Shown here in pieces: positions 1,908 through 16,893 of a DNA stretch of 22,749 nt. Where the stretch lies: positions 1-22,749 of the IMG/VR virus record IMGVR_UViG_3300028600_000176. The stretch is one strand, 5' to 3'. Below the pieces are notes generated by a model that was not told the DNA's origin, ran no database searches, and was given only the letters and a program-made list of their open reading frames with translations. A program made the position numbers and the translations under genes. This DNA is from a virus. The stretch's first letter is position 1, and each line of letters begins with the position of its first letter.

Positions 1908-2363
1908 ATGAAAACACAAACACAAACACAAACACAAACAGTTAAAGTCCGCGACCTTAAAGTGGGGGACATCATCATGATGGCAGGAACTGAACATATC
2001 GTAGAGGGTCTCTATCCATATGGCACAAGCTCCCACAGCACCATAGTCAAGACGAACCTGACCCCGAAGCAGCACGCCCCCTACTTGGACAACCTCCATG
2101 AGCTTGAGCTAGTCGGCTTCATGTCACCACACTTCACCATCGCAGTGGAGGCAGTGAACTTGGGTGATGCATGGAATAATGTATTCCACACGACCAAGCC
2201 CAAGGTCAAGCGCAAGTCGAAGATAGTGCAGCGCATCGAGGATGCAGGCTACCACATTGAGAAGACAGGACGGGAGTGGCACGTCTGGCACAAGGATGAT
2301 CACTCAGTCACTGCCATCTATGACAGGCTACGTGACATCCCCAGCTTCCCACCCTACGCTTAA
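1908..2363 (+). CDS. Hypothetical protein with (TQ)4 N-terminal repeat, 151 aa
   Basis: The protein opens MKTQTQTQTQT, encoded by an in-frame ACACAA hexamer tract. A small beta-barrel-like segment follows (VRDLKVGDIIMMAGTEHIV, residues 13-31), whose LKVGDII pattern is common in SH3-like and Hint-type beta folds; no intein or protease residues are present. A lysine-rich linker (KPKVKRKSK) leads to a C-terminal helix-strand-strand-helix segment (VQRIEDAGYHIEKTGREWHV) similar in plan to the N-terminal region of the 1015 gene. The start follows the A/C leader ACAACACCAAACAA. The function is unknown. Confidence 0.75.
   Translation: MKTQTQTQTQTVKVRDLKVGDIIMMAGTEHIVEGLYPYGTSSHSTIVKTNLTPKQHAPYLDNLHELELVGFMSPHFTIAVEAVNLGDAWNNVFHTTKPKVKRKSKIVQRIEDAGYHIEKTGREWHVWHKDDHSVTAIYDRLRDIPSFPPYA
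1914..1940 (+). repeat. In-frame hexanucleotide tract (ACACAA)4 ACA
   Basis: Four perfect ACACAA units plus ACA lie just after the start codon of the 1908 gene and encode alternating Thr and Gln. Being a multiple of three, copy changes would lengthen or shorten the TQ run without a frameshift. It extends the A/C-only composition of the upstream leader into the coding sequence. Confidence 0.9.
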
Positions 2364-2364
2364 A

Positions 2365-2382
2365 CCACAACCAATAGAAACA
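2365..2382 (+). promoter_or_regulatory. A/C-rich translation leader, copy 4
   Basis: CCACAACCAATAGAAACA stands immediately before the ATG at 2383. Unlike copies 2 and 3 its TAG is not the stop of the upstream gene, which ended at 2363. The motif is therefore conserved even where its TAG has no stop-codon role, which argues that the sequence itself matters. Confidence 0.6.
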
Positions 2383-2550
2383 ATGAGAACTACAATAACT
2401 ATACTCGGACTTGATAGCACCATCAACATGGTGGCCAACCTCAAGAAACTCATCACCGTAATTGAAGACCAAGAGGTTGACATGTATGAGGTGATGGATG
2501 GGTCATACCAGATTGAGAATGTTAACCTAGAGATAGACTCAACACCATGA
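2383..2550 (+). CDS. Hypothetical small protein, 55 aa
   Basis: Begins MRTTITILGLDSTINMVANL and continues as a strand-helix-strand mini-protein with an acidic C-terminus (VNLEIDSTP). The frame is open for 47 codons further upstream, but that part overlaps the 1908 gene out of frame. The A/C leader abuts the ATG at 2383, so I use that start. Its stop overlaps the next start as ATGA (2547-2550), indicating translational coupling to the membrane protein that follows. The family is unknown. Confidence 0.75.
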   Translation: MRTTITILGLDSTINMVANLKKLITVIEDQEVDMYEVMDGSYQIENVNLEIDSTP

Positions 2551-2732
2551 GCTATTTACTTGCACCCTTAATCCTGATCCCTGTATCCTGTTACCTGATT
2601 CACCTAGTGTGGGTCAGGTATCGGGAGGAGCAGCACCTCTCTAAGCTGAAGCGTGTAGCTGATGCTAGAAAAATCAATGACCTATCAAGACGATGGGTCA
2701 GCGAACTTGAACATAAAGTAAACAACCGATAG
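2547..2732 (+). CDS. Small single-pass membrane protein, 61 aa
   Basis: Residues 3-24 (YLLAPLILIPVSCYLIHLVW) form one hydrophobic segment. It is followed by a strongly charged, mostly basic helix (RYREEQHLSKLKRVADARK) that could make a coiled coil to the end. This suggests an inner-membrane anchor with a cytoplasmic or periplasmic helix. Small phage lysis helpers (i-spanin or holin-like) have this shape, but no endolysin is nearby, so the lysis role is only a possibility. It overlaps the upstream gene by four bases (ATGA). The last codons NNR then TAG fall in the next leader. Confidence 0.75.
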   Translation: MSYLLAPLILIPVSCYLIHLVWVRYREEQHLSKLKRVADARKINDLSRRWVSELEHKVNNR

Positions 2733-2743
2733 AACCCAAACAC
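2721..2743 (+). promoter_or_regulatory. Divergent copy of the A/C leader before the MarR gene
   Basis: AACAACCGATAGAACCCAAA then CAC precedes the ATG at 2744. Compared with copies 2 and 3 it has CGATAGAACCC for CAATAGAAAC. TAG is again the upstream stop. A second TAGAAACAAT occurs just after the start codon (2751-2760), inside the coding sequence. Confidence 0.45.
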
Positions 2744-3037
2744 ATGACCATAGAAACAATAATAAAAACACAGCAGCAATTCCTCAGAGCACACAAGCAC
2801 AAGCTTAACCTGACCCAAGCAATCACCATCCTCCTACTTGAGGAGGAGTCCATGACAACCAGTCACATCAGCCGTAAGATTGGACTGACTAGTGCTGCCA
2901 TGACTGGCATCCTTGACAAGCTCGAGTCCATGCGTCTTGTCTTCCGAAAGCGCAACCAGTATGACCGCCGAGTAGTAACCATTGGCCTCACCGACCGAGG
3001 CCGCGAGGCAGCACACGACATCATCAACCCACACTAA
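2744..3037 (+). CDS. Short MarR-type winged-helix transcriptional regulator
   Basis: A 97-aa protein with a MarR-like winged helix-turn-helix. Residues 22-34 (NLTQAITILLLEE) form the first helix, 38-47 (TTSHISRKIG) the positioning helix, 49-63 (TSAAMTGILDKLESM) the recognition helix, and 70-86 (RNQYDRRVVTIGLTDRG) the wing with the typical DRR and LTxxGR motifs. MarR proteins are dimeric repressors or activators, usually about 140-150 aa. This one is short because the terminal dimerisation helices are reduced, so it may dimerise differently. It probably controls phage transcription, but its target is unknown. An internal ATG at codon 37 has a strong Shine-Dalgarno sequence (see the hairpin at 2829). 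Confidence 0.85.
   Translation: MTIETIIKTQQQFLRAHKHKLNLTQAITILLLEEESMTTSHISRKIGLTSAAMTGILDKLESMRLVFRKRNQYDRRVVTIGLTDRGREAAHDIINPH
2829..2847 (+). promoter_or_regulatory. Shine-Dalgarno-containing hairpin inside the MarR gene
   Basis: TCCTCCT and AGGAGGA pair perfectly around a five-base ACTTG loop. AGGAGG (2841-2846) lies five bases before an in-frame ATG at 2852. It is the only canonical ribosome-binding site I saw at usable distance from an ATG. Internal initiation would give a 61-residue protein with just the recognition helix and wing. Because GAG codons for EEE produce this sequence, chance is a serious alternative. Confidence 0.3.
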
Positions 3038-3082
3038 CCAACCAACCAACCAACCAACCAACCAACCAACCAACCAACCAAC
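3036..3082 (+). repeat. Tetranucleotide tract (AACC)11 AAC
   Basis: Forty-seven bases of uninterrupted AACC repeat start within the stop codon of the MarR gene and end nine bases before the ATG at 3092. They make up most of that 54-base gap. Tetranucleotide tracts of this length are prone to replication slippage. Here slippage would change leader length rather than a reading frame. Confidence 0.95.
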
Positions 3083-3091
3083 TACAAAATT

Positions 3092-3532
3092 ATGAAACCA
3101 ACAAACAACAACAGCGTAACAATAATCCACCCCTATGTATACAACGGACAGTGGGTATTCGACGACGAGTCTCGTAAACTAGACAAGGAAGCATTCGTAT
3201 CAGGTGCTGACTCTATCATGGACATGCTATACCTTTCAGCCCATGGTGCCGAGGCAGCATTCATACCTGAGGCAGCGCAGTTCAGTCTATGCTTTTCAGA
3301 CACATCATTCAAGGGACACAAGTATCAATTCAATTGGGTCGAGGATAATGGAATGGTCTACGATGATGACCAGTGGAACTTATACATGGAGCCTACTTCT
3401 GGTATCAGTGGCTGGTTGTGCCCAGCCTTACTCAGATTCTTCCCTGACGCACCGAAGCACCTCTATGTGGAGGCTACTCCACACCAGCTGGGCCGCAACG
3501 TATCACGTGAGATCATATCCGCCAGCAAGTAA
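3092..3532 (+). CDS. Hypothetical protein, 146 aa (DUF6717-like plan, unverified)
   Basis: Residues 9-40 read as a hydrophobic strand then HPYVYNGQWVFDDESRKLDK and EAFVSGAD. From memory this PY-x-Y-x-G-x-W-V-F-D-D followed by E-x-F-V-x-G-A pattern resembles the DUF6717 family of unknown function; I could not check it. The rest is mixed alpha/beta with many aromatics (YQFNWVEDNGMVYDDDQWN) and a cysteine-containing helix (GWLCPALLRFF). There is no membrane or signal segment. Its leader is the AACC tract followed by ACTACAAAATT, so its expression may depend on tract length. Confidence 0.75.
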   Translation: MKPTNNNSVTIIHPYVYNGQWVFDDESRKLDKEAFVSGADSIMDMLYLSAHGAEAAFIPEAAQFSLCFSDTSFKGHKYQFNWVEDNGMVYDDDQWNLYMEPTSGISGWLCPALLRFFPDAPKHLYVEATPHQLGRNVSREIISASK

Positions 3533-3537
3533 CTCTC

Positions 3538-3849
3538 GTGAATACATACCTACTCAATACCAAGCAAGAAGCCAAACGACTAGTCGATAACGCCTGTCGT
3601 TTAACTGGGTTCACAGAAGATGAGATCATACTAGGCAGGGAGCACCGCTTTTCCCTGATCAGATATGTAATGTATTATATTCTGAGGCAGGGGGGAGCTA
3701 CGTTCCAAGAGATATCCAAGTCTATAGGGAACGTGCACTACACTACTGTTATTGGAGGCAACAAAAAGATCCAAGAACTTATCTATATTGACACCCAAGT
3801 CCAAGGAATATACAATCAATTACATAATGGAAGTCCCAACGACAAGTAA
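3538..3849 (+). CDS. Stand-alone DnaA domain-IV-like DNA-binding protein, 103 aa
   Basis: The whole protein aligns by eye with the C-terminal DNA-binding domain of DnaA. Residues 12-32 match the first helices (AKRLVDNACRLTGFTEDEII), 34-50 the RxxxxxxxR-x-x-MYYIL helix, and 54-80 the helix-turn-helix and signature (TFQEISKSIG then HYTTVIGGNKKI). The AAA+ ATPase domain is absent, so it cannot act as an initiator alone; it might bind an origin, compete with host DnaA or regulate transcription. By alignment with E. coli DnaA, R34 and R42 match R399 and R407, but Q408, D433 and H434 become Y43, H67 and Y68. The start is GTG, five bases after the previous stop. Confidence 0.8.
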   Translation: MNTYLLNTKQEAKRLVDNACRLTGFTEDEIILGREHRFSLIRYVMYYILRQGGATFQEISKSIGNVHYTTVIGGNKKIQELIYIDTQVQGIYNQLHNGSPNDK

Positions 3850-4186
3850 CATTGATCTCCTGACTGAGTTCCAGAAGGTGTTCAACACCCACATCAGACC
3901 TGTAGCGGAGTCAGAGTTGGAGGGCATGAGCAGTGAGAACGCACTGGAATATGATCGGCTAAGGGATAAGTTAATTCCAGCCTCTATCATCATCGACACC
4001 TTCCTGTATCTGTCGGTGCATCTCAGTGAGATGGCTGCTGATCAGATCATCGAGGCCCAAGCCGATGGTGATATTAGTAGGCTCATTGAGACCTGTGATA
4101 TACATGACCCATATTGGAAAGCAACACGATCATTGTCTCTGGCACTCAAGGTATTTGCACAAGAACCTGAGAGGGGAAACCCCTAA
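3827..4186 (+). CDS. Hypothetical helical protein, 119 aa
   Basis: Starts MEVPTTSNIDLLTEFQKVFN and is mainly helical and acidic (ESELEGMSSENALEYDRLRD, then AADQIIEAQADGD). An in-frame ATG 25 codons earlier lies deep inside the DnaA-like gene in another frame, so the start at 3827 is preferred; even so, the coding regions overlap by 23 bases. A short hairpin AGGGG-AAA-CCCCT (4172-4184) overlaps the end of the gene. There is no known motif, and the family is unknown. Confidence 0.7.
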   Translation: MEVPTTSNIDLLTEFQKVFNTHIRPVAESELEGMSSENALEYDRLRDKLIPASIIIDTFLYLSVHLSEMAADQIIEAQADGDISRLIETCDIHDPYWKATRSLSLALKVFAQEPERGNP

Positions 4187-4191
4187 CGATC

Positions 4192-4380
4192 ATGCCAAAC
4201 TCACACCATCCATACGAACGAGTGACTGGGGGTAAGGGGGATAGAGATATCCGAACCAACCCAACGACCTACCGCAACAGTTTATTCTGGAAGAGGTCAA
4301 CGTGCTGTGATGCACACGTCGAGTCCAAGGAGGGTAAGCTATACTGCAAGACATGTGGTAATCTGACCTCAACCAAGTAA
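4192..4380 (+). CDS. Small zinc-ribbon-like protein, 62 aa
   Basis: Last gene of the rightward cluster. The N-terminal 30 residues are polar and probably disordered. The C-terminal part has C38, C39 and H42 followed by C52 and C55 (CCDAHV, then YCKTCG), a likely CxxH plus CxxC zinc-ribbon knuckle pair. Such miniature proteins often bind nucleic acid or protein partners. It starts five bases after the previous stop and is followed by about 60 bases of spacer and a strong terminator. The specific function is unknown. Confidence 0.7.
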   Translation: MPNSHHPYERVTGGKGDRDIRTNPTTYRNSLFWKRSTCCDAHVESKEGKLYCKTCGNLTSTK

Positions 4381-4440
4381 AGTTAAGGCCCTGAGAATCG
4401 CACACACGGATTGATCCTGCACCCTGCACCGTGCTACATC

Positions 4441-4481
4441 AGCCCTGAACCCCTTTAAACACAGGGATTCAGGGCTTTCTT
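4441..4481 (+). terminator. Intergenic terminator between convergent operons
   Basis: AGCCCTGAACCCCT pairs with AGGGATTCAGGGCT (14 bp, one C-A mismatch) around the loop TTAAACAC and is followed by TTTCTT. It lies 60 bases after the last rightward gene and ends five bases from the stop of the leftward giant gene (4486). The T-run favours the plus strand, but the long stem could stop leftward transcripts too. Confidence 0.85.
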
Positions 4482-4485
4482 GTGT

Positions 4486-7400
4486 CTAGAACTTCTCGTC
4501 CAGCTCTATGTGTTTGAAGGGGTAGGTAGACATCGCTCTGTATATTGCACCAGCACGTCGGAGTGCGTCGTCCGTAGTCATGGTAGCATTTGGACCTTGT
4601 GACTTCGCGTATAACTTATTGAAAAACTTGGGTCCAATCACTGGCTTGTCCATCACACCATAGAAAGTATTCTTCGCTCTACGTTTACTAATACCTGAGC
4701 TAGTCATGATGTCATAGGCACCCTTCTCAGTCATACCAAGTCCAACATACCCTCGTGTGATTCGGACTAGATCATTCTGAATGATCTTTCTCTTGGCTAC
4801 CTCATCGTGGTATAGCTGGCCGAGTGCGTCGTCCGACTGCGGGCGGGCCGAGTATGCCCGATACTTGGCGCTAGAGACCCGATCATACTCATCCCTTAGC
4901 TCATACAAGTAGCGTCGATATTGTTTATCTACATCCACAGTGTGTGGTTTAAATGGTTTGAACTGATCAATCATGATCTGCAAAGGCATGTCCTCTTTCC
5001 GTAGCAGGGTAGGATCTATGTCCTTGGTGTCATACAGTTTCTTGAACCTCTTATAAAGATCAGGACCGTAAGCTTCCTTGAGAACATATGCCATCCGCTT
5101 GGTCATCTTAGTGATACCATCGTCAGTCCTCTCTTCGACGATGGGGTTATCCGTAGCAGCGTTCCTGTTCTCAGAGATATCTATGAGGGATGACGCTAGA
5201 ATCTGTGGATCAAGATACTGATCTGTCAGAAATCCCGTCACTAGTTTACCAGCACCTGACGCAAACTTACCACGCCTGACATCCTCCACCATACGAAGAA
5301 CAGGATCAGCCCCCAACGATAAAGGGTTTAGATAAGTGAAGTCCAAGCTTACGAGGTTACCCGTATCCTCGTCTCTGAAGTAGAAGAAAGTATGGCCGCG
5401 TAAGTAGGATGGGATGCCAGCCCTCATGGCCGCATCCTCTTCCTCCCCGATCCCAGCCATCGATTGGAGGACGGTTGGAACGACAGCCGACACGACACCA
5501 AGCATGTTAGTCATACTTAAAAAACGATTCAGGCCCCGTCTTTTTAGGACAGCATTCCCACTACGCATTTCCTCAAACGCCAGCTTGTATGTGTTCATTA
5601 CAATGCGGGGCACCTCTGCTTTGAATCGTATGAAAGGTGCAAAGAGCATACCAAAGTTGGACTGAGATAACCCAGTAATAAATGGTGGAGCCTCACTGTG
5701 TGACTGAGCAGTCATCTTAACTTTCTTAGCAGCCAACCTCTTGAGTTGATACTCATCCGTCGGGATGTTGGATCCTACCTCCTTACTTGCATCGCGCAAT
5801 ACTCGTAGTTCTTTCTCGAAGTATCCAATTTTATAGAAGGCGTCGATAGCCGAGGCCAATTCCGCCGCCTTTTCGTAAGCATACTTGGCAGGTTTGCCAC
5901 CCTTCTTCAGCTTGGAGAGAGGACCGACCTGCTCCTCCATGAGGATGTCTGGTGTTGTCTTCCCCCGCATCAGGTCCAGCATCATCTGTCCGCGAACCTC
6001 ATCACCGATGATGCCAAGGGAGGTATACTCAATCATGGCTTCCTCAATCTGCTCCCCGAGCACCATGCCTTTAGCCTTGGCACCCGCACGCTCAATCATA
6101 ATCAGTGGGACATCTTTCACAGCACCATAGTATCCTTGAGCAGGACCAAAGAAAAACATGTTACTAGCTGCGTTACGGACAAAGAACCCGACACTACCGA
6201 GAGTCTTACTAGCCATGGAGAGACCAGTGACTGCGCGTGCTAATCTCCCAAAGCTACCAATGACTTCCTCTGTTTTAGTTTGAAGCCCACGTAGTTCAGT
6301 GCGATCAAAAGTCTTGTCGAACCCGTCCTTTAATTCTGCTGGAGCATAGTATCCAGCGAGTGGGTCTCCGTCAGAAAGCTGGTCGGTATTCCGCAGTGGT
6401 CTCCATCCATTGTATGTATCAGGGTCCTCCTCACGGGCTATGACCAACTCATCGTAGGTCATTAAGAAACCCTCAGCTTTACCCATCGTAGCTACATTGT
6501 TGATGAACGCTTGGTTAGCGGACATCTTGGCCACTGTGGAGAACGTACGTAATAGGTTGTCAACTGTACCATCCTGCCCATACTCCCCAAGTAAATTTCG
6601 TAAGGAGATGTCTAAGTCTTTCTTCTCCTTGAGGTTGTCTACCATCACACGGTAGCTCTCCGCGTGGTTCTTAGCTAGCGCACTCATGCTGTTAGGTTTG
6701 TATGACTCCAGAAATTCATCAAGCATCCGTTGACCTTTGGGGTGGCCACTGTCATCCGCTGCTCGCAGCTTGGCTTCAGCCTGTGCAGTAGCATCGGACT
6801 CCGATAGGTTTTCATTTTTAACTAGCAAGGCAGTCTGGTCTTTCACATATTGCTTCTCAAAATATTTAATAGCAGCCTCCCTAACTTCGTGATAAGCACC
6901 ATCTGTCTGGACCTTCTTTGCATAGCCAGCATCCGTGAACATACGGTATGATCTGGTGATGTAGAAATCCATGTTCATGTCCATCCTTGCCTGTAGTTCT
7001 TCGTTTAACCCAAAGTTGTCCTTGATGTAAGTGGACAGTGGTTGAATAAGTTCCTTGCGGATGTCTCTGATATGCTGAGCAAGCTCGGGTGACACCGCTT
7101 CGAGCTGTCCCATGGCCTGATCCTTAGTGCGAAGAATTTCATCGCGAGCTATCATTTCTTCAGAGGCAACAGCTTCTTTCTTACGCAGCTTGGAGGCTTC
7201 TATTGCCGCCTTCGATTGTTCGCTAGTGAGGGCATCGTTGGCTACAATGGCTGTGAGCTCGGCCTCGTGGACCTTGTCAATATCTGTGAGAACCTCACTA
7301 TCTACGACGATACCTTTAGCATCACCCATAGCCTGTTCGAGCATCAACTTCTGTGTATCAGAAGGGGTGTCCCCAAAAGCTTTCTTGACCAGCTTGTCCA

Positions 7401-10400
7401 TCTTCCTCTTATACTTAGTTACAATAAGATCTGAGGCTCTCAGGAATGACAGTCTATTCTTATGTAGGTCTGTGATACGAGGATCGACTTCTCCTTGGAA
7501 CAACCGATTATACCAACGACGTGGTGCGTTGTAGTCACCCGTCTTATAGACTGGCATCTCAAGAGTTTTTAGGAAGCCAGCCATGTTGACACTGTCTGAA
7601 TCAATTGATCCACCAGACTCAAGCGAAGAGTTCAGAGCTTTACCCAATATAGGGGCGGCCTTCTTACCAAACTGTTCCATCGATGGGCTACCTACATTTA
7701 GGTCAAACCTAAATTGCTGATCCCACCCGTAGTTTCTCCACAAACCAAGTCCCTCCTTGTGCTTTACAATCTTGTTCATGGACCAAGTCTTACTCGAACT
7801 GGTAGCAATCTTTTCTAGCTTCTTCAGTCTGCTTGTGTGGTAGTCTTGGATACGTTTAAAGTTTGCCTCAACGTGAGCGATCACATCTGCATCTGCATTT
7901 GAATGAACTGTGTTCACATCCCCCAGTAGCCTGAATGAATAGTCACCACCCTTCTGAGTTATGACCACATCCATGACATCATACTTCTGCATGTCTTTGA
8001 TCTCAACCATGGCATTAGCATACTCCTCAGGGGCAGAGGTAGCTAACCACTCGGCAAAGTGATTGTGTATCTGGACAGGTAGTTGACCTTCCAAGCGTCC
8101 ACGAAACTCACTCAAGTCGGTTGAGGTATTCTCAAAGCCATACTTCGCCCACGCATCGTAGCCTTTTGTCATGGCTCCAGACTTCTGTAAGTCTGCAATC
8201 ATCTTGGCTTTCTTTGCAGGGTCAATCCCGTCTGCTTTTTTCAGAGCATTGACTAAGACTGCACGTCTTGACAGAGATATGTTCACAATCTGTCCTGAGC
8301 CTGAACCCTGAGTCACGATTGATGGAGCGTTGATCCCTCCGTTTGCAGCCAGAAGCTTTACAAGTAGGGGGATAGTATTTGGAGTTGCCGCCATACGTCC
8401 ACCCTCCTTGATGAGCTGCTCAATTTGTGCGGACTGTGCATCGGCCTCTGCATTACTGATCTCGCCTTTGTTGTAGCGGTCAACGATGTGATACTGTTCG
8501 TCTTCTAATGTGAATGGTGCCATGGACCCAACGCTTAGTGAGCCATCGGCCTCAATACTGAAGTCCATCATGGAACGCGATCCAGTTTTACCAACTACCA
8601 TCATCATGGTTGGGGTGACGGGGTTGGATAACTCATCCGTAATGATCTCCATGTATCCTCCCTTTGCTAATTCGCGAAGAGCTGTCCGTAGTTTGAATAC
8701 ATCAGTTGTGGCGACGAGAGGTTGCTCTCCATCCACGCCAATCACTTGCTCTTTTAACCGAATCACCATATCGGTGTCTAGCTCTTGTTGGGTGAGGGCC
8801 TGATCTTGCTGAGCATTAATCAACGCACTAAAATATCTCTGCTTGACGTTTTGTAGGGCTCTGCTAAGGGCTGGGCTATCTCCAAAATCAAGCATAAGCT
8901 CAGACTCAAGGCCGCTATCAAAGTCAGCCATCCCGTTACGCTCTGTGAGTAGTCCCTGTGTAGAAGGGTCAATGATTTCAGGAGCTACATTTTCTAGATA
9001 CCGCTGTAAGGTCTCACTCTGCTGGTCTGCGTCTGTGAGATTGATGATGTTCTCCGCAACAGTTAATGGACTTGTGGTGATGTTCTCGAGAACACTTTCT
9101 TCTACCATCTCATCTAGCGTGGTAAGTGCCACCTCATAGAAATCATCAGGGACTGCGTCAGTTCCCGCGGGTAGATTGTTGAGGGTCTCTTTTCGTGCCT
9201 GATCCCTCATTTTCCAACGTGCTCCCAGAACTCTTTCCTGTCGTTTCCTTAGAGAGGTCCTTAATTCCGTGCGGAGATCGGGGAGACTGGGTGCATCTGT
9301 ATCGCGATCTTCCTGCTCTGGGTAGTCTGCCCTGCCTGTGGTCAGGTCCGCCACAAACTGAACCTCTGCTCTGGGTATTCCTCCAATACTAGTATTCAAT
9401 GCCTCTGCGGCATTCAGCTCAGCTAGGAAATCTTCTGGGTCCGCAACCATTTTATCATTTAAGATAGCGGCCAGAGTGACATATGAATTGTCTGGATTGT
9501 TGGGGTCAAAATTGAGGTGGGTGGGTGCCATCCGATAACCCTGCTTAATAGCACGGAGCTCATCTACTAGTCTATTGACTGCCGATGACATATATTTGTT
9601 CTCCATACTACCAACAGAACGGCTGGCCGCCATCCTCTTGAATACCCCCATCACATAACGGAAGAGGATCTTCGTCATAGATGGATTGGTCTTATAAAAT
9701 GCATGGTCCTCTTCGGTGGTGTATCCTCTCGTTACACGCTGTCCGACTGAACGCAAGTGTTCCTCTACCAGCATACGTTTGGTGTTGAGGATCTCCTGTT
9801 GGAGGGTGGCTAGCTCCTCTGGCGTCATGTCTGCCGTTACCTCCGCTGCCAGCAAAGCCTTGGTGTCATCACGCTTCGTATTGTTAGTGGTAAAATAGTT
9901 ATCGATGATGCGCTCGAAGTCATCCTTGCTGAGAGCTGATGCTAACTGGTCTATCTCCGATTGTGAGAGTGCGTTGTAGGATGCTACATGAGCGAGCTCT
10001 TCCTCAATCACGGCTGACATGAGTAAGCGGGAAGACACAATGTCCATGTCCTTAGTAAGCTGAAAGATGACTTCTGGGTTTAGGTATATCATACCTCCCT
10101 GCATCTTCGCAGGACCAGAGGATTCAGGGTCAAAGGCGAGGTTCACCTCAGGTGGGATAAGGTCCCTCATGTGTTGCAAGATAGCCCTCATTTTCGTTTG
10201 GGCTTCGCTAAGGTTCAGCATGTTATCAGGGACATCTAAGTCTCCAAGCTCACCGACCAATGCCTCAACTTCTGCGGCATTGTTAATGGCATTCTCTTCG
10301 AGAGAACTATTCAAAATTTGCCTCTCCCTTGAGTTAAGTGGCTTGTCAGCTTGCCTCGTAGCCTGCTGTCGGGATTCATAACCAGCCATGTTTTCTACTC

Positions 10401-13400
10401 CAATAGCACGAAGCATCATGTTGTTTCTATCCATCTGAACCATGGCAGCTTGCGCGATCCGCTTGGCTGCGGTCTTGGCACTAGCTTCCACACCTTCTCC
10501 TGACTTGACAGTAATGACATCTACGATGGCATTGCTATACTCAGCTGCTTCGGCAGAGGTCACGCCTTTGCCAAAGAATCTAAGGATGGCATCACCAATC
10601 CTCTTGAAGAAACTCTTCTTGGCATTCTTGGCCTTGCCAAGTGCGAGGATCTCCTGCTGTAACTCATTGGACAACATGATACCTGCAATAAATTCGTCTA
10701 TGTTCCCTAAGGAATCCATGATGGGACTGTTGGGTGCGTATCCGTTTTCACGTGCGGCCTCTCGGATCTCTCCCATTAGGTTTTCTAACCTACTGCGGGC
10801 CTCTTGCTGGGACTGGGTGAGGTTCTCTTGGGGTTGAGACACGGTGTTCCATAGAGTGGCGTGGAGATACTCTTCGAGGAGAACATTGGTGAGTCCTTTT
10901 CCGTTGTGACCATTCATGTTGAGGGTCACACTTAGAGACCCATCAGTATGCTTCGTAAACAATCCAGCATACTTCCCTAAGTTCAGCTCCGTGATATTAA
11001 ATTCTATGGCTGTAATAAGGGAAGGGTTCTCAAGGAGTAACTCAGCCACAAGCGAGTGCTGCTTATTCAGTTTGTTGGCAGCGATGTTCCTTAAGGCCGT
11101 AAGCACACTCTCAGGATCACCTGATACAAGACCAAGCCTCTTAGCTTCAGCCGTGTTGAGCTCATTAGCCATGGCCTGTCCTGCTTGACTGACTCTGGAT
11201 CTCGCCATTCTACTCGCACGAGTGTTGGCGTTGGCTTTGGCGAAGGCGCTCGCGTCAGCCCCATTCTTGAGATTCTTCTGGACTGTCTGCGTGTACCCTG
11301 AATCCTGACTCATGTTCCCGTCAACTGAAGCAGTATTAATGTTCAGGATCTTGAGAGCATTTTGCAGGCGCAGCATCTCAGGATCCTGTTGAGTAGAATC
11401 CTCATTCTGCATTGACTGGAGTCGGTCTTTAAAATCTTTGACCTTCTGGTTTTGGCGACCTTCATCTAACCACGCTTGAACGAGACGCATCAGCTCTGAG
11501 CTGGAAGTCTTCTTGACCTGCTTACGGTTAGTCGGAGTGTCTCTCATGACAGAATCGAACACTAAATCTTCGAGTAGGGTTCTGGCTTCTTTCTTCTGGT
11601 CTAAATTTTCGAGGGCAGCAGCTGCTTCATCATATGCCATGTAAGCATCTTTCCTCTCAGGAGCGAGGTCAGTAATATTAGCACGCTGGAAACGAGCCAC
11701 CTGTTCAGCCTCAACATTAATAGCACCGCCGCCGTCTTCACGGCTTACATCTAACTCGACAGTTTGGATCGTGTCTTGGCGACTTTTCTTTTTGTTGTAG
11801 CGTTGCTGCCCAGCCATGCGGGTGGCAACCTTTTTAGCGATGGTTCCTACCGTTGGCATTGCATCCTTGGTAACTTTGTTGTTTAGTATTTCATCCAGCA
11901 CATAGTTGGATACGGTTTCTAAACTATTGGCACTGACCCTATCTACGGACATCATCGGAGATACCTGCTTAGCTAGGTTCTTCTGGCCAGCATTAGTTTT
12001 AGGAGTATTTGTAAACTCCATAAATGCTTGTAAGAGCTGTGTTCTAGCCGCGAGTTCATTCTGTGGTTGTATCTCATATACACCATCGGCATTTTGCTGA
12101 ACATACGAACGGACATTATTACGACTACCTTCCTGTAGAAGTTCTTGTCTTATCGCCCTCACATAGGCAAAGTATTTTGTTTCAGCTTGGACCGATAGGG
12201 ACCCAGCGGTAAGATAAATTGGATCAAGTGGTTCCCCACGGGGGCTCATAAGACTGAAAAAGCTGCCTTCCGAGGCATCGTCGAGCGCCGCCGTCACATA
12301 CATATCAGTTGCATCCGCTACCTCAGCTGCTGTTACTGTCTCCCCTTCGTTCAGGTCTCTTGAGGTTGTGGCACCAGTTGGGATGCTGTCCACGGTGACG
12401 GGTAGATTGCCAACCTGAACATCATCAAACATAAGCGAAGCCACCATGTATTTTTCAAAGGTAGTGTTATCTTCAACAGTATCTCTAGCTCTAGCTTTTT
12501 TATGGTGACTCGTCATTACAAGACCTTCCTGTTGCTCTGGCTTGCGGATCATAGTCACACGTCTACCCTCCTTCCAGTCTACCACAAATGCCTTGTTTAC
12601 ATCAGCTGGGTCCATATCTTCAGGAACCGTAAATGGAATTTCAGCTTCTTCGAGTAGAGCCATAGTCAGTGGGTTGTTGTCAAACACCCCTCGACCATCT
12701 TCGTCTACATAAGCACGGTGCACGGTACGAACAGATTTTTGTGTCTTCGGGTTAAACCATGTCTTGGCTTTTGACTCCTTTGTCGTGATGGTTTCCCCGC
12801 CGACTGGTTCAGAGACTTCTATCCACGGGCTGTTTTCATAAATGCGAGTGGCGATGTAGTCCGAGATGCGAGAGTAATATTTAGGTGGGCGTCCCTCAAT
12901 AGAGACCACCCCATAATTTTGTTTGGTGCTGATCCTTACAGGATACCCTGCATCGATCACCGATTGTATCTTGGGGGCGTTGTTTTTTGGATCGCCTAAA
13001 CCAATGAGTTCCTCGATCTCCTTGCTGAGCTCAATGACTTCATCTTCTGTTTCGTTAAGCGGAGCCTCAGTGGTATCCTCATCCAGCTGTTGCTCATAGG
13101 CATCCGCTGCACGGGCTGCATTAACCTCTTCAGGGTTAATTCCTGCCGCCTCTAGGTTAATGACTTCTGTTCTCGTAGGAGGGGGAGATAGCACATCTAA
13201 GAATGCTGGTGACACCGTGGACCTCGTGGTATCAAAGTCTCCCGTCAAGCTGTTAGCGGCCTCCTCGGACAAATCCATTTCGATTTGAACTGGTGCTTTG
13301 ATGGCCTCCTTTTTAAACTGCTCTTCCTCCATTTCTTGGCGGTTTGCCGTCTCCCAGTCCTCTGGGGTGCGCTCCTCTAGCTCTTGAATGATAGTAAAGA

Positions 13401-16400
13401 TATCTTGAGTGTCCTGATCTACGCCAATCTGCTCATTGTTTTCGGGATCAATTACCCCAACAATATTTCCATCCTCATTGAGGACATAGTTCTCAGTGAT
13501 TGTTGCAGCGGCTTCTTCTGCGGAGATCTCGTCCCCTGTTATAGCCGCAATGTCACTGGCAACAAATGAGGCATCCACCACACCGTTCTGTCGGATCAAC
13601 TCAGCTACACGCTTGCGAATAAAGGGCTCTGATTTCTCGATGCTGGGTTCTACGACCGCTGGCTGCTGCTGACCCACACTTGTGGGGGTGGGGATTGTAG
13701 TATCAGCTTCAGCTCCGCCATCACTAGGCTGGTCTTCGACAACAGGATCCACCTGCTCGGTGGGAGCTGCTTCAGGGAATACAATGGTGTTCAATGTGTC
13801 TGATCCCGTTTCAGATGGGATTACTACACCGTTCGAGAGACCAACTACCCTAGCATAAGTCTTGTCCCTAGCTTTAACATCTTGTTTTACCACAACAACT
13901 TGGGCAACATTCCCGCTGGGTAACTGAACCCAGTCGCCCTCGACCAGATCATTAACAGTGGTTGGGGTGGATGGTATACTCTGGTCAAACTCACGTTCAC
14001 CTTGAGGGATTTCAACTGGTGTTGGTTCGGCTTCTGGAGGAGCTTCTTCTTGAGAGGGTGGTGTGCCCGATGGGCCGCTAGGAGCTGGTGGGGTTTCTTG
14101 CCCTGTGGGGCCAGCATCTCCATTACCACCCCTAGTCTGTGTGTATCTGTCGTATGCTCCGCGAGCGGCGTCAACCTCCCCAATAGGTACGGTCAAAATT
14201 TGTTCAACTAGTTGAGCTGACACAGGAGCCCCGCTTTCATTGAGGCGGTCCGTTACATCTTTGATGAATCCCTGCTGCACGGCTCGCTGTTCAGCTCTGG
14301 CCATCGCTGACGTAGTTCCATTAATGCTCTGAATGGCACGTCTACCTGCTGGAAGACCGCCACCAAATATACCACCAGCTAAGGCAGCCCAACCAGCACC
14401 AGAAATACGTTCCAGAAGAGGGGTGTCCTGATCCGTGTAGAAGTCTGTGACTATCCCATTCACGAACTCATCAATAAATTCTTCTGCACTCTCTCCCGCC
14501 GCGTCACTAATGATTTCCCCAAGCACTGTATCCTTTAGACCATACTTAGAACTACCATAGACAGATTTCCTAGTCGCGGCTTTGAGAACACCAGCGAGGA
14601 GTTTGTCCTGCTTGCCAGACGCAGCCACCTGTTGACCCCTTTTACTCAGGCGAGAGATCACTCCTACAGCTTGCTTCTTGGACATGCCTGACAAGAAAGT
14701 TTTTTCGGCACCTCCCGCGCCAATTGCACCAAAGGATCCTGTGAGCAAGGCGGTAAAAGCTCCGCCCACTAAGCCTGCCCCAAGAGCTCTATCGTGTTTT
14801 TCTTCGTGAGATAGCCCACTTGATTCCAAGGCAGCATAAGTGCTGGCATAGGTCATTCCCGCCGATCTGTTAAATGCAGGTAATGCCATCGCTGGGATGG
14901 TGTTGAGTTTGCTGACTTGGAACTTGCTAAACTTTTCAATTGCGTCCATGGCACCCTTCCTACCACTCGCTCCTGTGGTAGTAACAAAACCATCCTTGAC
15001 TAAGCGGTTCAGAGTTGTCTCTGCGCTTTCCCTGCCCGTGACTTTAAAGGCATTGGTAACAATACCTTTCGCTACATTCTTCAAAGTCAGGTTAGCACCT
15101 GTCTTCGCAGCTAAGTATCCAGCACCACCTACGCCACCAGTGAAGAAAGCCAGTGCACCTGTGATGGCCACATCAGTAACGACGGGGGCTACCATCTCAG
15201 CGATGTCTTGCCCCATACCCATCTCGACTCCAAACAGACGAGCGGTTGCACGCCTAGCTTGGTTGTCTTTGATCTGATCTTGGAGATAACCCTGAGCATA
15301 TTCATTCCCCATCATGGCAGGTATAGCAGCAAGTGCACTCCCCAAGGCGTTGGGGATGGACATACCAATACCACCAATACGGGAAGTTAGCTCACTGTAA
15401 TTATCATCATCCTCCACAAACTCCTCTAGAATTGTCCCATTGCTTTTTCCTTCCGCCAGACCTACCTGAACTGCTTCCTGCCATTCATCTTGGGCATTTC
15501 CATTAGAGAGAATCTGGTTATATGTGTCGAAGTTATTCTCTAAGGTCAGCTTTCTTTGGTTTTGTAAGTTTGTTACCTGCTCCTCAGATAGCTGTGGGTT
15601 GGCCTCAATGATAGCATCAAACATCTGTTTGCGTGGGACGGCAGCACCGTGCATTACGGCATCTTGGTACCCATAATCCTTTAAGTTATACTTCAACTTA
15701 TCGGGCTCATCTTGGAAAGCCCACAGGTTTTGTTCGGTTGCGGCACCTGCCGCAGCTTGCTCCACCACTTTCTTCAGATCATCGAAGTCAACACTCTCAC
15801 CTTTGGAAGATACTAATCCCGTCTCTTCTAGGATATAACCAAGGTTTTCTACATTGCTATCATATACTTTCTTAGCGCGATTGATCTCCTGTTGATCACC
15901 ACTAGCTAGACCCTCATCATAAGTAGCCAGTGCTTGGATGGTAGAGGTCCAATACTTTTTGGCACGGTTGTGCGGCGTAGCCTCAATTGTATTCTGGTCA
16001 GGCCCAAAAAATCCTTTTCCATCAGCATTGGTATGAATAAAACCAGCCAACATGCGACCTTCTCGGTCTACTTGCATTGTGCCGAGGGTGTTTCCGCTCG
16101 CATCCTCGTCGGTAAGTAGCGCGTTCAGATTATCTGCGAGATCCGCGAACCGACGCTGCTCACTGTAGGTCGTGCCTTTCAGGTTAACGGCGCTATTTGA
16201 TGCCTCAATCTCTAGCGCGTCATCGTATCCAATGCCTAGATGCTTGGAGGACTCAATAATCTCTTTAGTGCTCATCCCCTTAGCTTGCTTGCCAAGTCTA
16301 ATTACTGACTCACCAGTCGAATCCGTAACCCTCGCCGCGATAACATTGCCAGTGTTAACACTATCTATAACAGACTTATCCCAATCTGCACTATAGGCTA

Positions 16401-16893
16401 CCTCCTCTGCCTCCGCCCTGAGTTGGTTCCGCTGCTCTATATAGGCGGGGTCATTCACCTCCCCGTGTTTAGCTATTGCCTTTTCATTTGCAAAGAACGC
16501 AGTTGCCTTTTGCCATTGTTCAGTATCACTCCCGTATGTGCTAGTGATCGTCTGTAGGCGTGACTCCAGACTGATCTCTTTTGGGGCATACAAAGCCTTC
16601 ACTTGGTCCTTATCCTGAGGATCTAGGAGTCCTTTTGAGGATAGAGCGGACTGGTAGTTCTGTCTCAGGTCTACCTCCACGGCTGCATTCCACGTGTCTT
16701 CTTTAAAGTGGTGCTGCCTTACGAAATCAGAATACCCTTTGTAATCTTTAGCATCATCACCAGTGGCATTTTCTTCCCCCCACTCTGAAAACTTAGCGTA
16801 GGTGGGTGTTGGGATCGCTTGGGTAGTATCATAAGCGGAGGAGTCTGCGCTGGCCTCTAGGGGAGCGCGTAGGAATTGGGATAAATCAGTCAT
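4486..16893 (-). CDS. Giant phage polyvalent/ejection-type protein, 4135 aa
   Basis: One uninterrupted frame. Residues 1-560 are mostly charged helices. Three glycine-rich hydrophobic blocks follow (about 571-600, 702-726 and 829-850), possibly membrane-inserting. A Pro/Glu linker (about 922-968) and a small beta segment (VNDLVEGDWVQLPSGN) come next. Residues about 1960-2070 and 2270-2380 resemble phage metallopeptidase domains but carry EExxH (E2007-H2011 and E2298-H2302) instead of HExxH. The C-terminal third has helices, a hydrophobic NAASNMFFFG segment (about 3565-3582) and APFIRFKAEVPRIVMN (about 3750), reminiscent of the LPD38 region of large polyvalent phage proteins. No lytic transglycosylase or RNA-polymerase core was recognised. 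Its place at the end of the terminase operon suggests a virion protein delivered with the DNA. The start ATG is 27 bases after the previous stop, without a Shine-Dalgarno sequence. Confidence 0.85.
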   Translation of the reverse strand: MTDLSQFLRAPLEASADSSAYDTTQAIPTPTYAKFSEWGEENATGDDAKDYKGYSDFVRQHHFKEDTWNAAVEVDLRQNYQSALSSKGLLDPQDKDQVKALYAPKEISLESRLQTITSTYGSDTEQWQKATAFFANEKAIAKHGEVNDPAYIEQRNQLRAEAEEVAYSADWDKSVIDSVNTGNVIAARVTDSTGESVIRLGKQAKGMSTKEIIESSKHLGIGYDDALEIEASNSAVNLKGTTYSEQRRFADLADNLNALLTDEDASGNTLGTMQVDREGRMLAGFIHTNADGKGFFGPDQNTIEATPHNRAKKYWTSTIQALATYDEGLASGDQQEINRAKKVYDSNVENLGYILEETGLVSSKGESVDFDDLKKVVEQAAAGAATEQNLWAFQDEPDKLKYNLKDYGYQDAVMHGAAVPRKQMFDAIIEANPQLSEEQVTNLQNQRKLTLENNFDTYNQILSNGNAQDEWQEAVQVGLAEGKSNGTILEEFVEDDDNYSELTSRIGGIGMSIPNALGSALAAIPAMMGNEYAQGYLQDQIKDNQARRATARLFGVEMGMGQDIAEMVAPVVTDVAITGALAFFTGGVGGAGYLAAKTGANLTLKNVAKGIVTNAFKVTGRESAETTLNRLVKDGFVTTTGASGRKGAMDAIEKFSKFQVSKLNTIPAMALPAFNRSAGMTYASTYAALESSGLSHEEKHDRALGAGLVGGAFTALLTGSFGAIGAGGAEKTFLSGMSKKQAVGVISRLSKRGQQVAASGKQDKLLAGVLKAATRKSVYGSSKYGLKDTVLGEIISDAAGESAEEFIDEFVNGIVTDFYTDQDTPLLERISGAGWAALAGGIFGGGLPAGRRAIQSINGTTSAMARAEQRAVQQGFIKDVTDRLNESGAPVSAQLVEQILTVPIGEVDAARGAYDRYTQTRGGNGDAGPTGQETPPAPSGPSGTPPSQEEAPPEAEPTPVEIPQGEREFDQSIPSTPTTVNDLVEGDWVQLPSGNVAQVVVVKQDVKARDKTYARVVGLSNGVVIPSETGSDTLNTIVFPEAAPTEQVDPVVEDQPSDGGAEADTTIPTPTSVGQQQPAVVEPSIEKSEPFIRKRVAELIRQNGVVDASFVASDIAAITGDEISAEEAAATITENYVLNEDGNIVGVIDPENNEQIGVDQDTQDIFTIIQELEERTPEDWETANRQEMEEEQFKKEAIKAPVQIEMDLSEEAANSLTGDFDTTRSTVSPAFLDVLSPPPTRTEVINLEAAGINPEEVNAARAADAYEQQLDEDTTEAPLNETEDEVIELSKEIEELIGLGDPKNNAPKIQSVIDAGYPVRISTKQNYGVVSIEGRPPKYYSRISDYIATRIYENSPWIEVSEPVGGETITTKESKAKTWFNPKTQKSVRTVHRAYVDEDGRGVFDNNPLTMALLEEAEIPFTVPEDMDPADVNKAFVVDWKEGRRVTMIRKPEQQEGLVMTSHHKKARARDTVEDNTTFEKYMVASLMFDDVQVGNLPVTVDSIPTGATTSRDLNEGETVTAAEVADATDMYVTAALDDASEGSFFSLMSPRGEPLDPIYLTAGSLSVQAETKYFAYVRAIRQELLQEGSRNNVRSYVQQNADGVYEIQPQNELAARTQLLQAFMEFTNTPKTNAGQKNLAKQVSPMMSVDRVSANSLETVSNYVLDEILNNKVTKDAMPTVGTIAKKVATRMAGQQRYNKKKSRQDTIQTVELDVSREDGGGAINVEAEQVARFQRANITDLAPERKDAYMAYDEAAAALENLDQKKEARTLLEDLVFDSVMRDTPTNRKQVKKTSSSELMRLVQAWLDEGRQNQKVKDFKDRLQSMQNEDSTQQDPEMLRLQNALKILNINTASVDGNMSQDSGYTQTVQKNLKNGADASAFAKANANTRASRMARSRVSQAGQAMANELNTAEAKRLGLVSGDPESVLTALRNIAANKLNKQHSLVAELLLENPSLITAIEFNITELNLGKYAGLFTKHTDGSLSVTLNMNGHNGKGLTNVLLEEYLHATLWNTVSQPQENLTQSQQEARSRLENLMGEIREAARENGYAPNSPIMDSLGNIDEFIAGIMLSNELQQEILALGKAKNAKKSFFKRIGDAILRFFGKGVTSAEAAEYSNAIVDVITVKSGEGVEASAKTAAKRIAQAAMVQMDRNNMMLRAIGVENMAGYESRQQATRQADKPLNSRERQILNSSLEENAINNAAEVEALVGELGDLDVPDNMLNLSEAQTKMRAILQHMRDLIPPEVNLAFDPESSGPAKMQGGMIYLNPEVIFQLTKDMDIVSSRLLMSAVIEEELAHVASYNALSQSEIDQLASALSKDDFERIIDNYFTTNNTKRDDTKALLAAEVTADMTPEELATLQQEILNTKRMLVEEHLRSVGQRVTRGYTTEEDHAFYKTNPSMTKILFRYVMGVFKRMAASRSVGSMENKYMSSAVNRLVDELRAIKQGYRMAPTHLNFDPNNPDNSYVTLAAILNDKMVADPEDFLAELNAAEALNTSIGGIPRAEVQFVADLTTGRADYPEQEDRDTDAPSLPDLRTELRTSLRKRQERVLGARWKMRDQARKETLNNLPAGTDAVPDDFYEVALTTLDEMVEESVLENITTSPLTVAENIINLTDADQQSETLQRYLENVAPEIIDPSTQGLLTERNGMADFDSGLESELMLDFGDSPALSRALQNVKQRYFSALINAQQDQALTQQELDTDMVIRLKEQVIGVDGEQPLVATTDVFKLRTALRELAKGGYMEIITDELSNPVTPTMMMVVGKTGSRSMMDFSIEADGSLSVGSMAPFTLEDEQYHIVDRYNKGEISNAEADAQSAQIEQLIKEGGRMAATPNTIPLLVKLLAANGGINAPSIVTQGSGSGQIVNISLSRRAVLVNALKKADGIDPAKKAKMIADLQKSGAMTKGYDAWAKYGFENTSTDLSEFRGRLEGQLPVQIHNHFAEWLATSAPEEYANAMVEIKDMQKYDVMDVVITQKGGDYSFRLLGDVNTVHSNADADVIAHVEANFKRIQDYHTSRLKKLEKIATSSSKTWSMNKIVKHKEGLGLWRNYGWDQQFRFDLNVGSPSMEQFGKKAAPILGKALNSSLESGGSIDSDSVNMAGFLKTLEMPVYKTGDYNAPRRWYNRLFQGEVDPRITDLHKNRLSFLRASDLIVTKYKRKMDKLVKKAFGDTPSDTQKLMLEQAMGDAKGIVVDSEVLTDIDKVHEAELTAIVANDALTSEQSKAAIEASKLRKKEAVASEEMIARDEILRTKDQAMGQLEAVSPELAQHIRDIRKELIQPLSTYIKDNFGLNEELQARMDMNMDFYITRSYRMFTDAGYAKKVQTDGAYHEVREAAIKYFEKQYVKDQTALLVKNENLSESDATAQAEAKLRAADDSGHPKGQRMLDEFLESYKPNSMSALAKNHAESYRVMVDNLKEKKDLDISLRNLLGEYGQDGTVDNLLRTFSTVAKMSANQAFINNVATMGKAEGFLMTYDELVIAREEDPDTYNGWRPLRNTDQLSDGDPLAGYYAPAELKDGFDKTFDRTELRGLQTKTEEVIGSFGRLARAVTGLSMASKTLGSVGFFVRNAASNMFFFGPAQGYYGAVKDVPLIMIERAGAKAKGMVLGEQIEEAMIEYTSLGIIGDEVRGQMMLDLMRGKTTPDILMEEQVGPLSKLKKGGKPAKYAYEKAAELASAIDAFYKIGYFEKELRVLRDASKEVGSNIPTDEYQLKRLAAKKVKMTAQSHSEAPPFITGLSQSNFGMLFAPFIRFKAEVPRIVMNTYKLAFEEMRSGNAVLKRRGLNRFLSMTNMLGVVSAVVPTVLQSMAGIGEEEDAAMRAGIPSYLRGHTFFYFRDEDTGNLVSLDFTYLNPLSLGADPVLRMVEDVRRGKFASGAGKLVTGFLTDQYLDPQILASSLIDISENRNAATDNPIVEERTDDGITKMTKRMAYVLKEAYGPDLYKRFKKLYDTKDIDPTLLRKEDMPLQIMIDQFKPFKPHTVDVDKQYRRYLYELRDEYDRVSSAKYRAYSARPQSDDALGQLYHDEVAKRKIIQNDLVRITRGYVGLGMTEKGAYDIMTSSGISKRRAKNTFYGVMDKPVIGPKFFNKLYAKSQGPNATMTTDDALRRAGAIYRAMSTYPFKHIELDEKF

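What the first reader, a model, noticed from the sequence alone, without database searches (positions are those of the whole stretch)
9763..10960. Two metallopeptidase-like segments both carry EExxH instead of HExxH
Residues E2007-E2008-Y-L-H2011 (with downstream DEFIAG, E2067) and E2298-E2299-L-A-H2302 (with downstream VEEH, E2377) follow beta strands and sit in helices as in phage gluzincin-like domains. In both copies the first zinc-binding histidine is glutamate (codon GAA). The same replacement twice suggests an inherited functional variant: an altered metal site, a pseudo-enzyme or a domain duplication. EExxH pairs also occur in di-iron carboxylate proteins, so another metal is conceivable.
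Basis: partly seen in the sequence, partly recalled or inferred. Interest (0 to 1): 0.6.

Follow-up and report, generated by a model that had tools for sequence, protein, structure and literature searches.

The report
Paired phage zincins with glutamate ligand
A giant protein that this phage probably packs into its particle and injects carries two metal-enzyme-like domains in which one metal-binding histidine is a glutamate, and 47 distinct relatives show that this position is only ever glutamate or histidine, so it looks like a maintained alternative metal site and not a decayed enzyme.

Summary
Both EExxH motifs are at the stated coordinates, in one 4135-residue ORF on the minus strand of an IMG/VR phage fragment. 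With a 26-row alignment AlphaFold2 gives both segments (D1 ~1940-2115, D2 ~2225-2420) a confident zincin topology, not a ferritin-like bundle. D1 is a sequence homologue of the HExxH domain of ejected virion proteins, including solved ones (9sfn, 8vb2; N4 vRNAP weakly). In 48 non-redundant relatives carrying the pair, the other site residues (E2008, H2011, E2067; E2299, H2302, E2378) never vary, and the first ligand is only H or E: D1/D2 are H/E in 22, E/E in 21, E/H in 5, H/H in none. A chance HExxH elsewhere in the protein varies freely at that position. So this is a maintained ligand variant, probably a Glu-His-Glu metal site, not decay. Corrections: the D2 third-ligand candidate is E2378, not E2377; a D1-D2 duplication is not detectable; the two substitutions have different histories; di-iron is not supported. 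Metal, activity and role (self-processing beside a variable effector region, or a non-catalytic ejection module) are inferred. The module belongs to the known polyvalent/virion MPTase class; I found no description of the conserved EExxH variant.

The parts
4486..16893 (-). Giant ORF, 4135 aa: probable virion-packaged, ejected polyvalent protein
   Evidence: relatives with the same domain order
14794..14808 (-). HEEKH (residues 696-700) in the N-terminal hydrophobic region: chance HExxH, used as internal control
   Evidence: in relatives position 1 is H, E, D, P, R or A and position 5 can be R
10549..11076 (-). D1: zincin-like domain, residues about 1940-2115
   Evidence: AlphaFold2 pLDDT about 70-95 over most of it; homology to ejection proteins 9sfn_G, 8vb2_A and vRNAP zincin
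10861..10875 (-). D1 motif EEYLH, residues 2007-2011
   Evidence: position 2007 is E in 26 and H in 22 of 48; E2008 and H2011 invariant
10693..10695 (-). D1 presumed third ligand E2067 (DEFIAG)
   Evidence: invariant in 48 of 48
9634..10221 (-). D2: zincin-like domain, residues about 2225-2420
   Evidence: AlphaFold2 pLDDT about 73-92 over most of it; family of 39 loci
9988..10002 (-). D2 motif EELAH, residues 2298-2302
   Evidence: position 2298 is E in 43 and H in 5 of 48; E2299 and H2302 invariant
9760..9762 (-). D2 presumed third ligand E2378 (second E of VEEHLR)
   Evidence: invariant in all 46 rows with a residue there
7639..9396 (-). Variable region after D2 (residues about 2500-3085), probable exchangeable payload
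   Evidence: identity to the near relative falls from about 80% to 36-65% here and returns to about 80% after it; relatives carry ART-PolyVal, GNAT/methyltransferase or DUF7178 here
4507..7638 (-). Conserved C-terminal region (residues about 3086-4129)
   Evidence: 29-36% identity in distant relatives; matches large proteins of Pseudoalteromonas phage Y3 and Pelagibacter phage HTVC027P

Best explanation
D1 and D2 are two zincin-fold domains in the middle of a giant, probably packaged and ejected phage protein of the polyvalent type. In each, the metal site keeps the general-base glutamate, the last histidine of the motif and the downstream glutamate, while the first ligand is an interchangeable His or Glu. 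The window has Glu in both. Most likely the site still binds a divalent metal through a Glu-His-Glu triad and serves as a slow or conditional processing (self-cleaving) site next to the variable effector region, with Glu changing metal affinity or preference. Shown: fold prediction, homology of D1, invariance of the site, restriction of position 1 to H/E. Inferred: metal binding, identity of the metal, catalysis, self-processing, packaging and ejection.
For: Site residues invariant in 48 non-redundant relatives and position 1 only H or E; in the 23 rows found by motif-blind patterns the same holds. H to E needs two base changes, and both codons of each residue are in use, so this is not sequencing error or a hotspot. 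By BLOSUM62 only about 9% of His changes give Glu and about 3% of Glu changes give His. The chance HExxH at 696 varies freely in the same proteins. Both domains get zincin topology at good confidence. The D1 profile hits 9sfn_G (E 4e-10) and 8vb2_A (5e-5), both HExxH ejection proteins; N4-like vRNAPs, an internal virion protein and a DarB-like protein read here all have HExxH. Precedent: EEXXH in ZIP8/ZIP14 is needed for Mn transport (PMC10457451); H1 to E is about twofold enriched in zincin motifs (PMC3650047).
Against: No metal, activity or cleavage data. The model carries no metal and its coordinates could not be measured. Strong conservation would also fit a pseudo-enzyme that uses the site for another purpose. 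Foldseek against PDB puts zincins at the top but with no E below 1e-3. N4 vRNAP, with a canonical motif, is reported to be packaged uncleaved (PMC5512222).
Confidence: 0.5

Rival explanations
1. Maintained pseudo-peptidase: the Glu forms no metal site; the domain is a structural or partner-binding part of the ejection apparatus, and the conserved polar cluster is held together by hydrogen bonds or a salt bridge (for example E2298 with R2381).
For: The zincin region of N4 vRNAP is reported to be needed for encapsidation while the protein is packaged unprocessed (PMC5512222). In the E/E class no canonical HExxH remains apart from the chance one. R2381 is conserved in 43 of 46. Inactive partner domains are common among metallopeptidases (PMC11266112).
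Against: Reviewed pseudopeptidases mostly change several site residues and to many letters; here only one residue changes and only to Glu. R2381 stays Arg when 2298 is His, so no compensating pair is seen.
Confidence: 0.33
2. Division of labour: one domain of each pair is the working HExxH site and the other a Glu-type regulatory site, with the roles exchanged between lineages; the window class has given up the canonical site altogether.
For: Combinations are H/E 22, E/E 21, E/H 5, H/H 0; D2 has His only inside the clade where D1 has Glu.
Against: Only about two changes per domain on the tree, and the independent-pairs test has no power; the hypergeometric P of 0.038 ignores relatedness. E/E lineages are common.
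Confidence: 0.1
3. Di-iron carboxylate (ferritin-like) site built from the two ExxH motifs.
For: Two ExxH motifs plus conserved Glu in one chain.
Against: Each motif follows a three-stranded sheet and lies in its own zincin-like domain; canonical HExxH homologues exist for both.
Confidence: 0.02
4. Chance EExxH strings or sequencing error.
For: EExxH is short; 0.24 expected by composition.
Against: Conserved in independent metagenomes and 48 lineages.
Confidence: 0.01

Closest known systems
Zincin-like MPTase domains of polyvalent proteins (Iyer et al. 2017, PMC5512222)
   Same: Zincin core, active-site helix plus Glu helix, one to several copies in giant phage proteins with exchangeable effectors (ART, GNAT, methyltransferase)
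   Different: The text describes HEXXH and HEXXXH variants; a conserved EExxH class is not mentioned
C1 zincin domain of Schitoviridae virion RNA polymerase (N4; PMC12633501; PDB 11fw)
   Same: D1 is a sequence homologue; giant ejected protein
   Different: Canonical HExxH; no D2 found there in the records read; no RNA polymerase domain was detected in the window protein
Ejection proteins 9sfn_G (internal virion protein) and 8vb2_A (tetrameric ejection protein gp48, phage PhiM1)
   Same: D1-homologous domain with solved chains
   Different: HEAVH and HEAAH motifs; proteins of about 1300 aa
ZIP8/ZIP14 (SLC39) EEXXH metal transporters
   Same: Same His to Glu exchange at the first position of a metal-binding HEXXH, altering metal specificity (PMC10457451, PMC5661630)
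   Different: Unrelated membrane transporters; analogy only

Membership tests
Zincin-like MPTase of polyvalent proteins | N-terminal helix, three-stranded sheet, two C-terminal helices | tested here: met
   Model numbering (add 1899): D1 H45-54, E65-69, E78-82, E88-93, H102-119, H166-175; D2 H331-346, E352-355, E363-366, E369-372, H386-409, H459-490
Zincin-like MPTase of polyvalent proteins | HEXXH in the first C-terminal helix | tested here: not met
   EEYLH and EELAH in the window; met by the homologous D1 or D2 in relatives
Zincin-like MPTase of polyvalent proteins | Glu in the following helix | tested here: met
   E2067 and E2378 invariant and helical in the model
Zincin-like MPTase of polyvalent proteins | Sequence relationship of D1 to known members | tested here: met
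   vRNAP zincin E 1e-3 in the phage collection for relative L038; 9sfn_G E 4e-10 with the family profile
Zincin-like MPTase of polyvalent proteins | Sequence relationship of D2 to known members | tested here: inconclusive
   No match in phages, genomes or PDB sequences; assignment rests on fold and on HELSH/HELAH/HETIH relatives
Active zinc peptidase | Zn binding and peptide-bond cleavage | not testable with these tools
   No biochemical data
Di-iron carboxylate protein | Four-helix bundle with paired ExxH | tested here: not met
   Predicted fold is zincin-like
Polyvalent protein | Several unrelated domains incl. effectors in one phage-encoded giant protein | tested here: met
   Met in relatives: ART-PolyVal, GNAT, methyltransferase, DUF7178 after D2; the window protein itself has no Pfam domain
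Polyvalent protein | Packaged and transferred to the host | not testable with these tools
   Inferred from homology to ejected proteins and a virion structural PHROG match in L075

The most novel reading that the evidence does not exclude
A large phage protein family carries a conserved non-canonical zincin site (Glu-His-Glu with the general-base Glu kept) that uses a metal other than zinc, such as manganese or iron, for cleavage or another reaction in the ejected protein.
Probability: 0.2. Interest if true: 0.75.

Novelty: new variant of a known kind. Interest (0 to 1): 0.55.

Why it matters
Zincins with a changed first histidine are usually called dead. Here the change is to one residue only, is kept across a diverse phage family, and is matched by close relatives with the canonical motif in the same place. 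That gives natural pairs in which to ask what Glu does in a zincin site, and whether the metal sites of giant ejected proteins matter for packaging, processing or action in the host.

Tried and rejected
Two-sequence AlphaFold2 model: pLDDT 42, meaningless fold matches, replaced by the 26-row model. Pfam, PHROGs and phage tblastn with the window region itself: nothing, apart from a weak PHROG match to D2. First viral scans with the window region or a near-identical pair: only the near relative at most; terminase linkage opened the family. Duplication of D1 and D2: no significant profile match. D2 in annotated phages, bacterial genomes or PDB sequences: no match. HEEKH at 696 as a third zinc site: rejected, its positions drift. 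A replacement ligand: His1987 is present in 22 of 26 D1-Glu rows and no D1-His row, but the window has Leu there, so it is at most lineage-specific. Exclusion of H/H: suggestive only.

Full report
What is there. The window is an IMG/VR phage fragment. A single ORF at 4486-16893 on the minus strand codes for 4135 aa, next to three smaller ORFs and a terminase large subunit. A relative on a 66-kb contig has the same giant protein with both motifs, DEFIAG and VEEH unchanged, a terminase of 92% identity, and an ORF that I read as an N4-gp56-like major capsid protein (own reading).

Finding the family. Direct searches failed. Terminase linkage gave relatives of 45-54% and 28% identity in the region. 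They show true HExxH in D2 of one group (HELSH) and in D1 of another (HEYAH). A D2 profile scan with patterns that do not touch the motif gave 39 loci, each with the D1-D2 tandem in a long ORF; a D1 scan gave 80 loci, partly overlapping. After removal of rows above 90% identity, 48 remained.

The site. In these 48 rows E2008, H2011, E2067, E2299 and H2302 are invariant, and E2378 is invariant in the 46 rows that have a residue there. Position 2007 is E 26 / H 22; position 2298 is E 43 / H 5. One pattern of the D1 scan demands E or H at position 1, so I also counted the 23 rows of the motif-blind scan: E/E 11, H/E 11, E/H 1, nothing else.

Fold. With 26 sequences AlphaFold2 gives pLDDT about 70-95 over most of D1 and D2 (mean 72.7 overall, pTM 0.42, so their relative placement is unsure). 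Each has a helix, three strands, the motif helix and a later helix bearing the glutamate, which is the zincin core described for polyvalent proteins. PDB fold matches are weak in E-value but led by zincins; the viral library gives internal core proteins and a virion RNA polymerase at 2.7e-5 to 1e-3. By sequence, the family profile matches the solved ejection proteins 9sfn_G at 4e-10 and 8vb2_A at 5e-5, and a D1-only profile matches N4 vRNAP weakly at 0.019. The reference-phage D1 homologues that were read (L042-L044, L164-L172) all have HExxH. D2 has no sequence match outside the family.

History. On a tree built without the two trait columns, D1 needs at least 2 changes and D2 at least 2. D1-Glu is almost one clade; D2-Glu is widespread, and D2-His sits in two places inside the D1-Glu clade, one of them next to the window's own branch. 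So the two Glu are not one event copied by duplication. The outgroup state for D1 is His, hence Glu is probably derived there; D2 cannot be rooted. No protein has H/H, but with so few changes this is not statistically supported.

Setting. Between the window and its near relative, identity is about 80% over D1-D2, drops to 36-65% over residues 2500-3085, and rises again to about 80%. In other relatives this stretch holds ART-PolyVal, GNAT and methyltransferase, or DUF7178. The tandem therefore borders an exchangeable payload, as expected for a polyvalent protein whose peptidase domains are proposed to process it (PMC5512222).

Mechanism. Decay is disfavoured: only one residue changes, only to one other residue that can bind metal, through two base changes, with both codons of each in use. 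Two main readings remain: an altered but working metal site (favoured, 0.5) and a maintained non-catalytic site (0.33). ZIP8/ZIP14 show that EEXXH can be the functional form of a metal site and change metal choice, though they are unrelated proteins. Metal binding, activity, self-processing, packaging and ejection were not tested.

Novelty. The fold and setting are known. A conserved EExxH class beside canonical relatives is not mentioned in the passages I read on polyvalent MPTases, N4 vRNAP or pseudopeptidases, and a full-text search for EExxH together with HExxH found only two papers on ZIP transporters. H1 to E changes as such are on record, for example often in peptidase family M2 (PMC3650047). 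The paper library lacks most subscription journals, so absence there is weak evidence.

Noticed in passing
window 3538-3849 (+): Small ORF of 103 aa resembling the DnaA C-terminal DNA-binding domain (Bac_DnaA_C, E 1.8e-5, below Pfam's cut-off) without the ATPase part.
   Followed up: partly
window 2744-3037 (+): MarR-type regulator of 97 aa (Pfam MarR E 3.4e-9) encoded by a phage.
   Followed up: partly
L040 giant ORF 2121-13091, residue 1243: An additional canonical zincin (HELGH with a later NELIAEF), so this relative has three zincin-like domains; L071 has an extra D1-like HEAAH domain at residue 2533 of its ORF.
   Followed up: partly
window 10933-10935 (residue 1987): A His at the start of the strand before the motif helix is present in 22 of 26 D1-Glu relatives and in none of the D1-His ones, but the window has Leu; possibly a lineage-specific ligand or pocket residue.
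   Followed up: partly
L013 19404-19718 (-): The 66-kb relative encodes a separate 104-aa protein with HEVSH, a possible stand-alone zincin; no Pfam match.
   Followed up: partly
window 2834-3130 (-): Mechanical ORF with a repeated VGWL stretch opposite the MarR gene; looks like a short tandem repeat in the DNA and not a gene.
   Followed up: no
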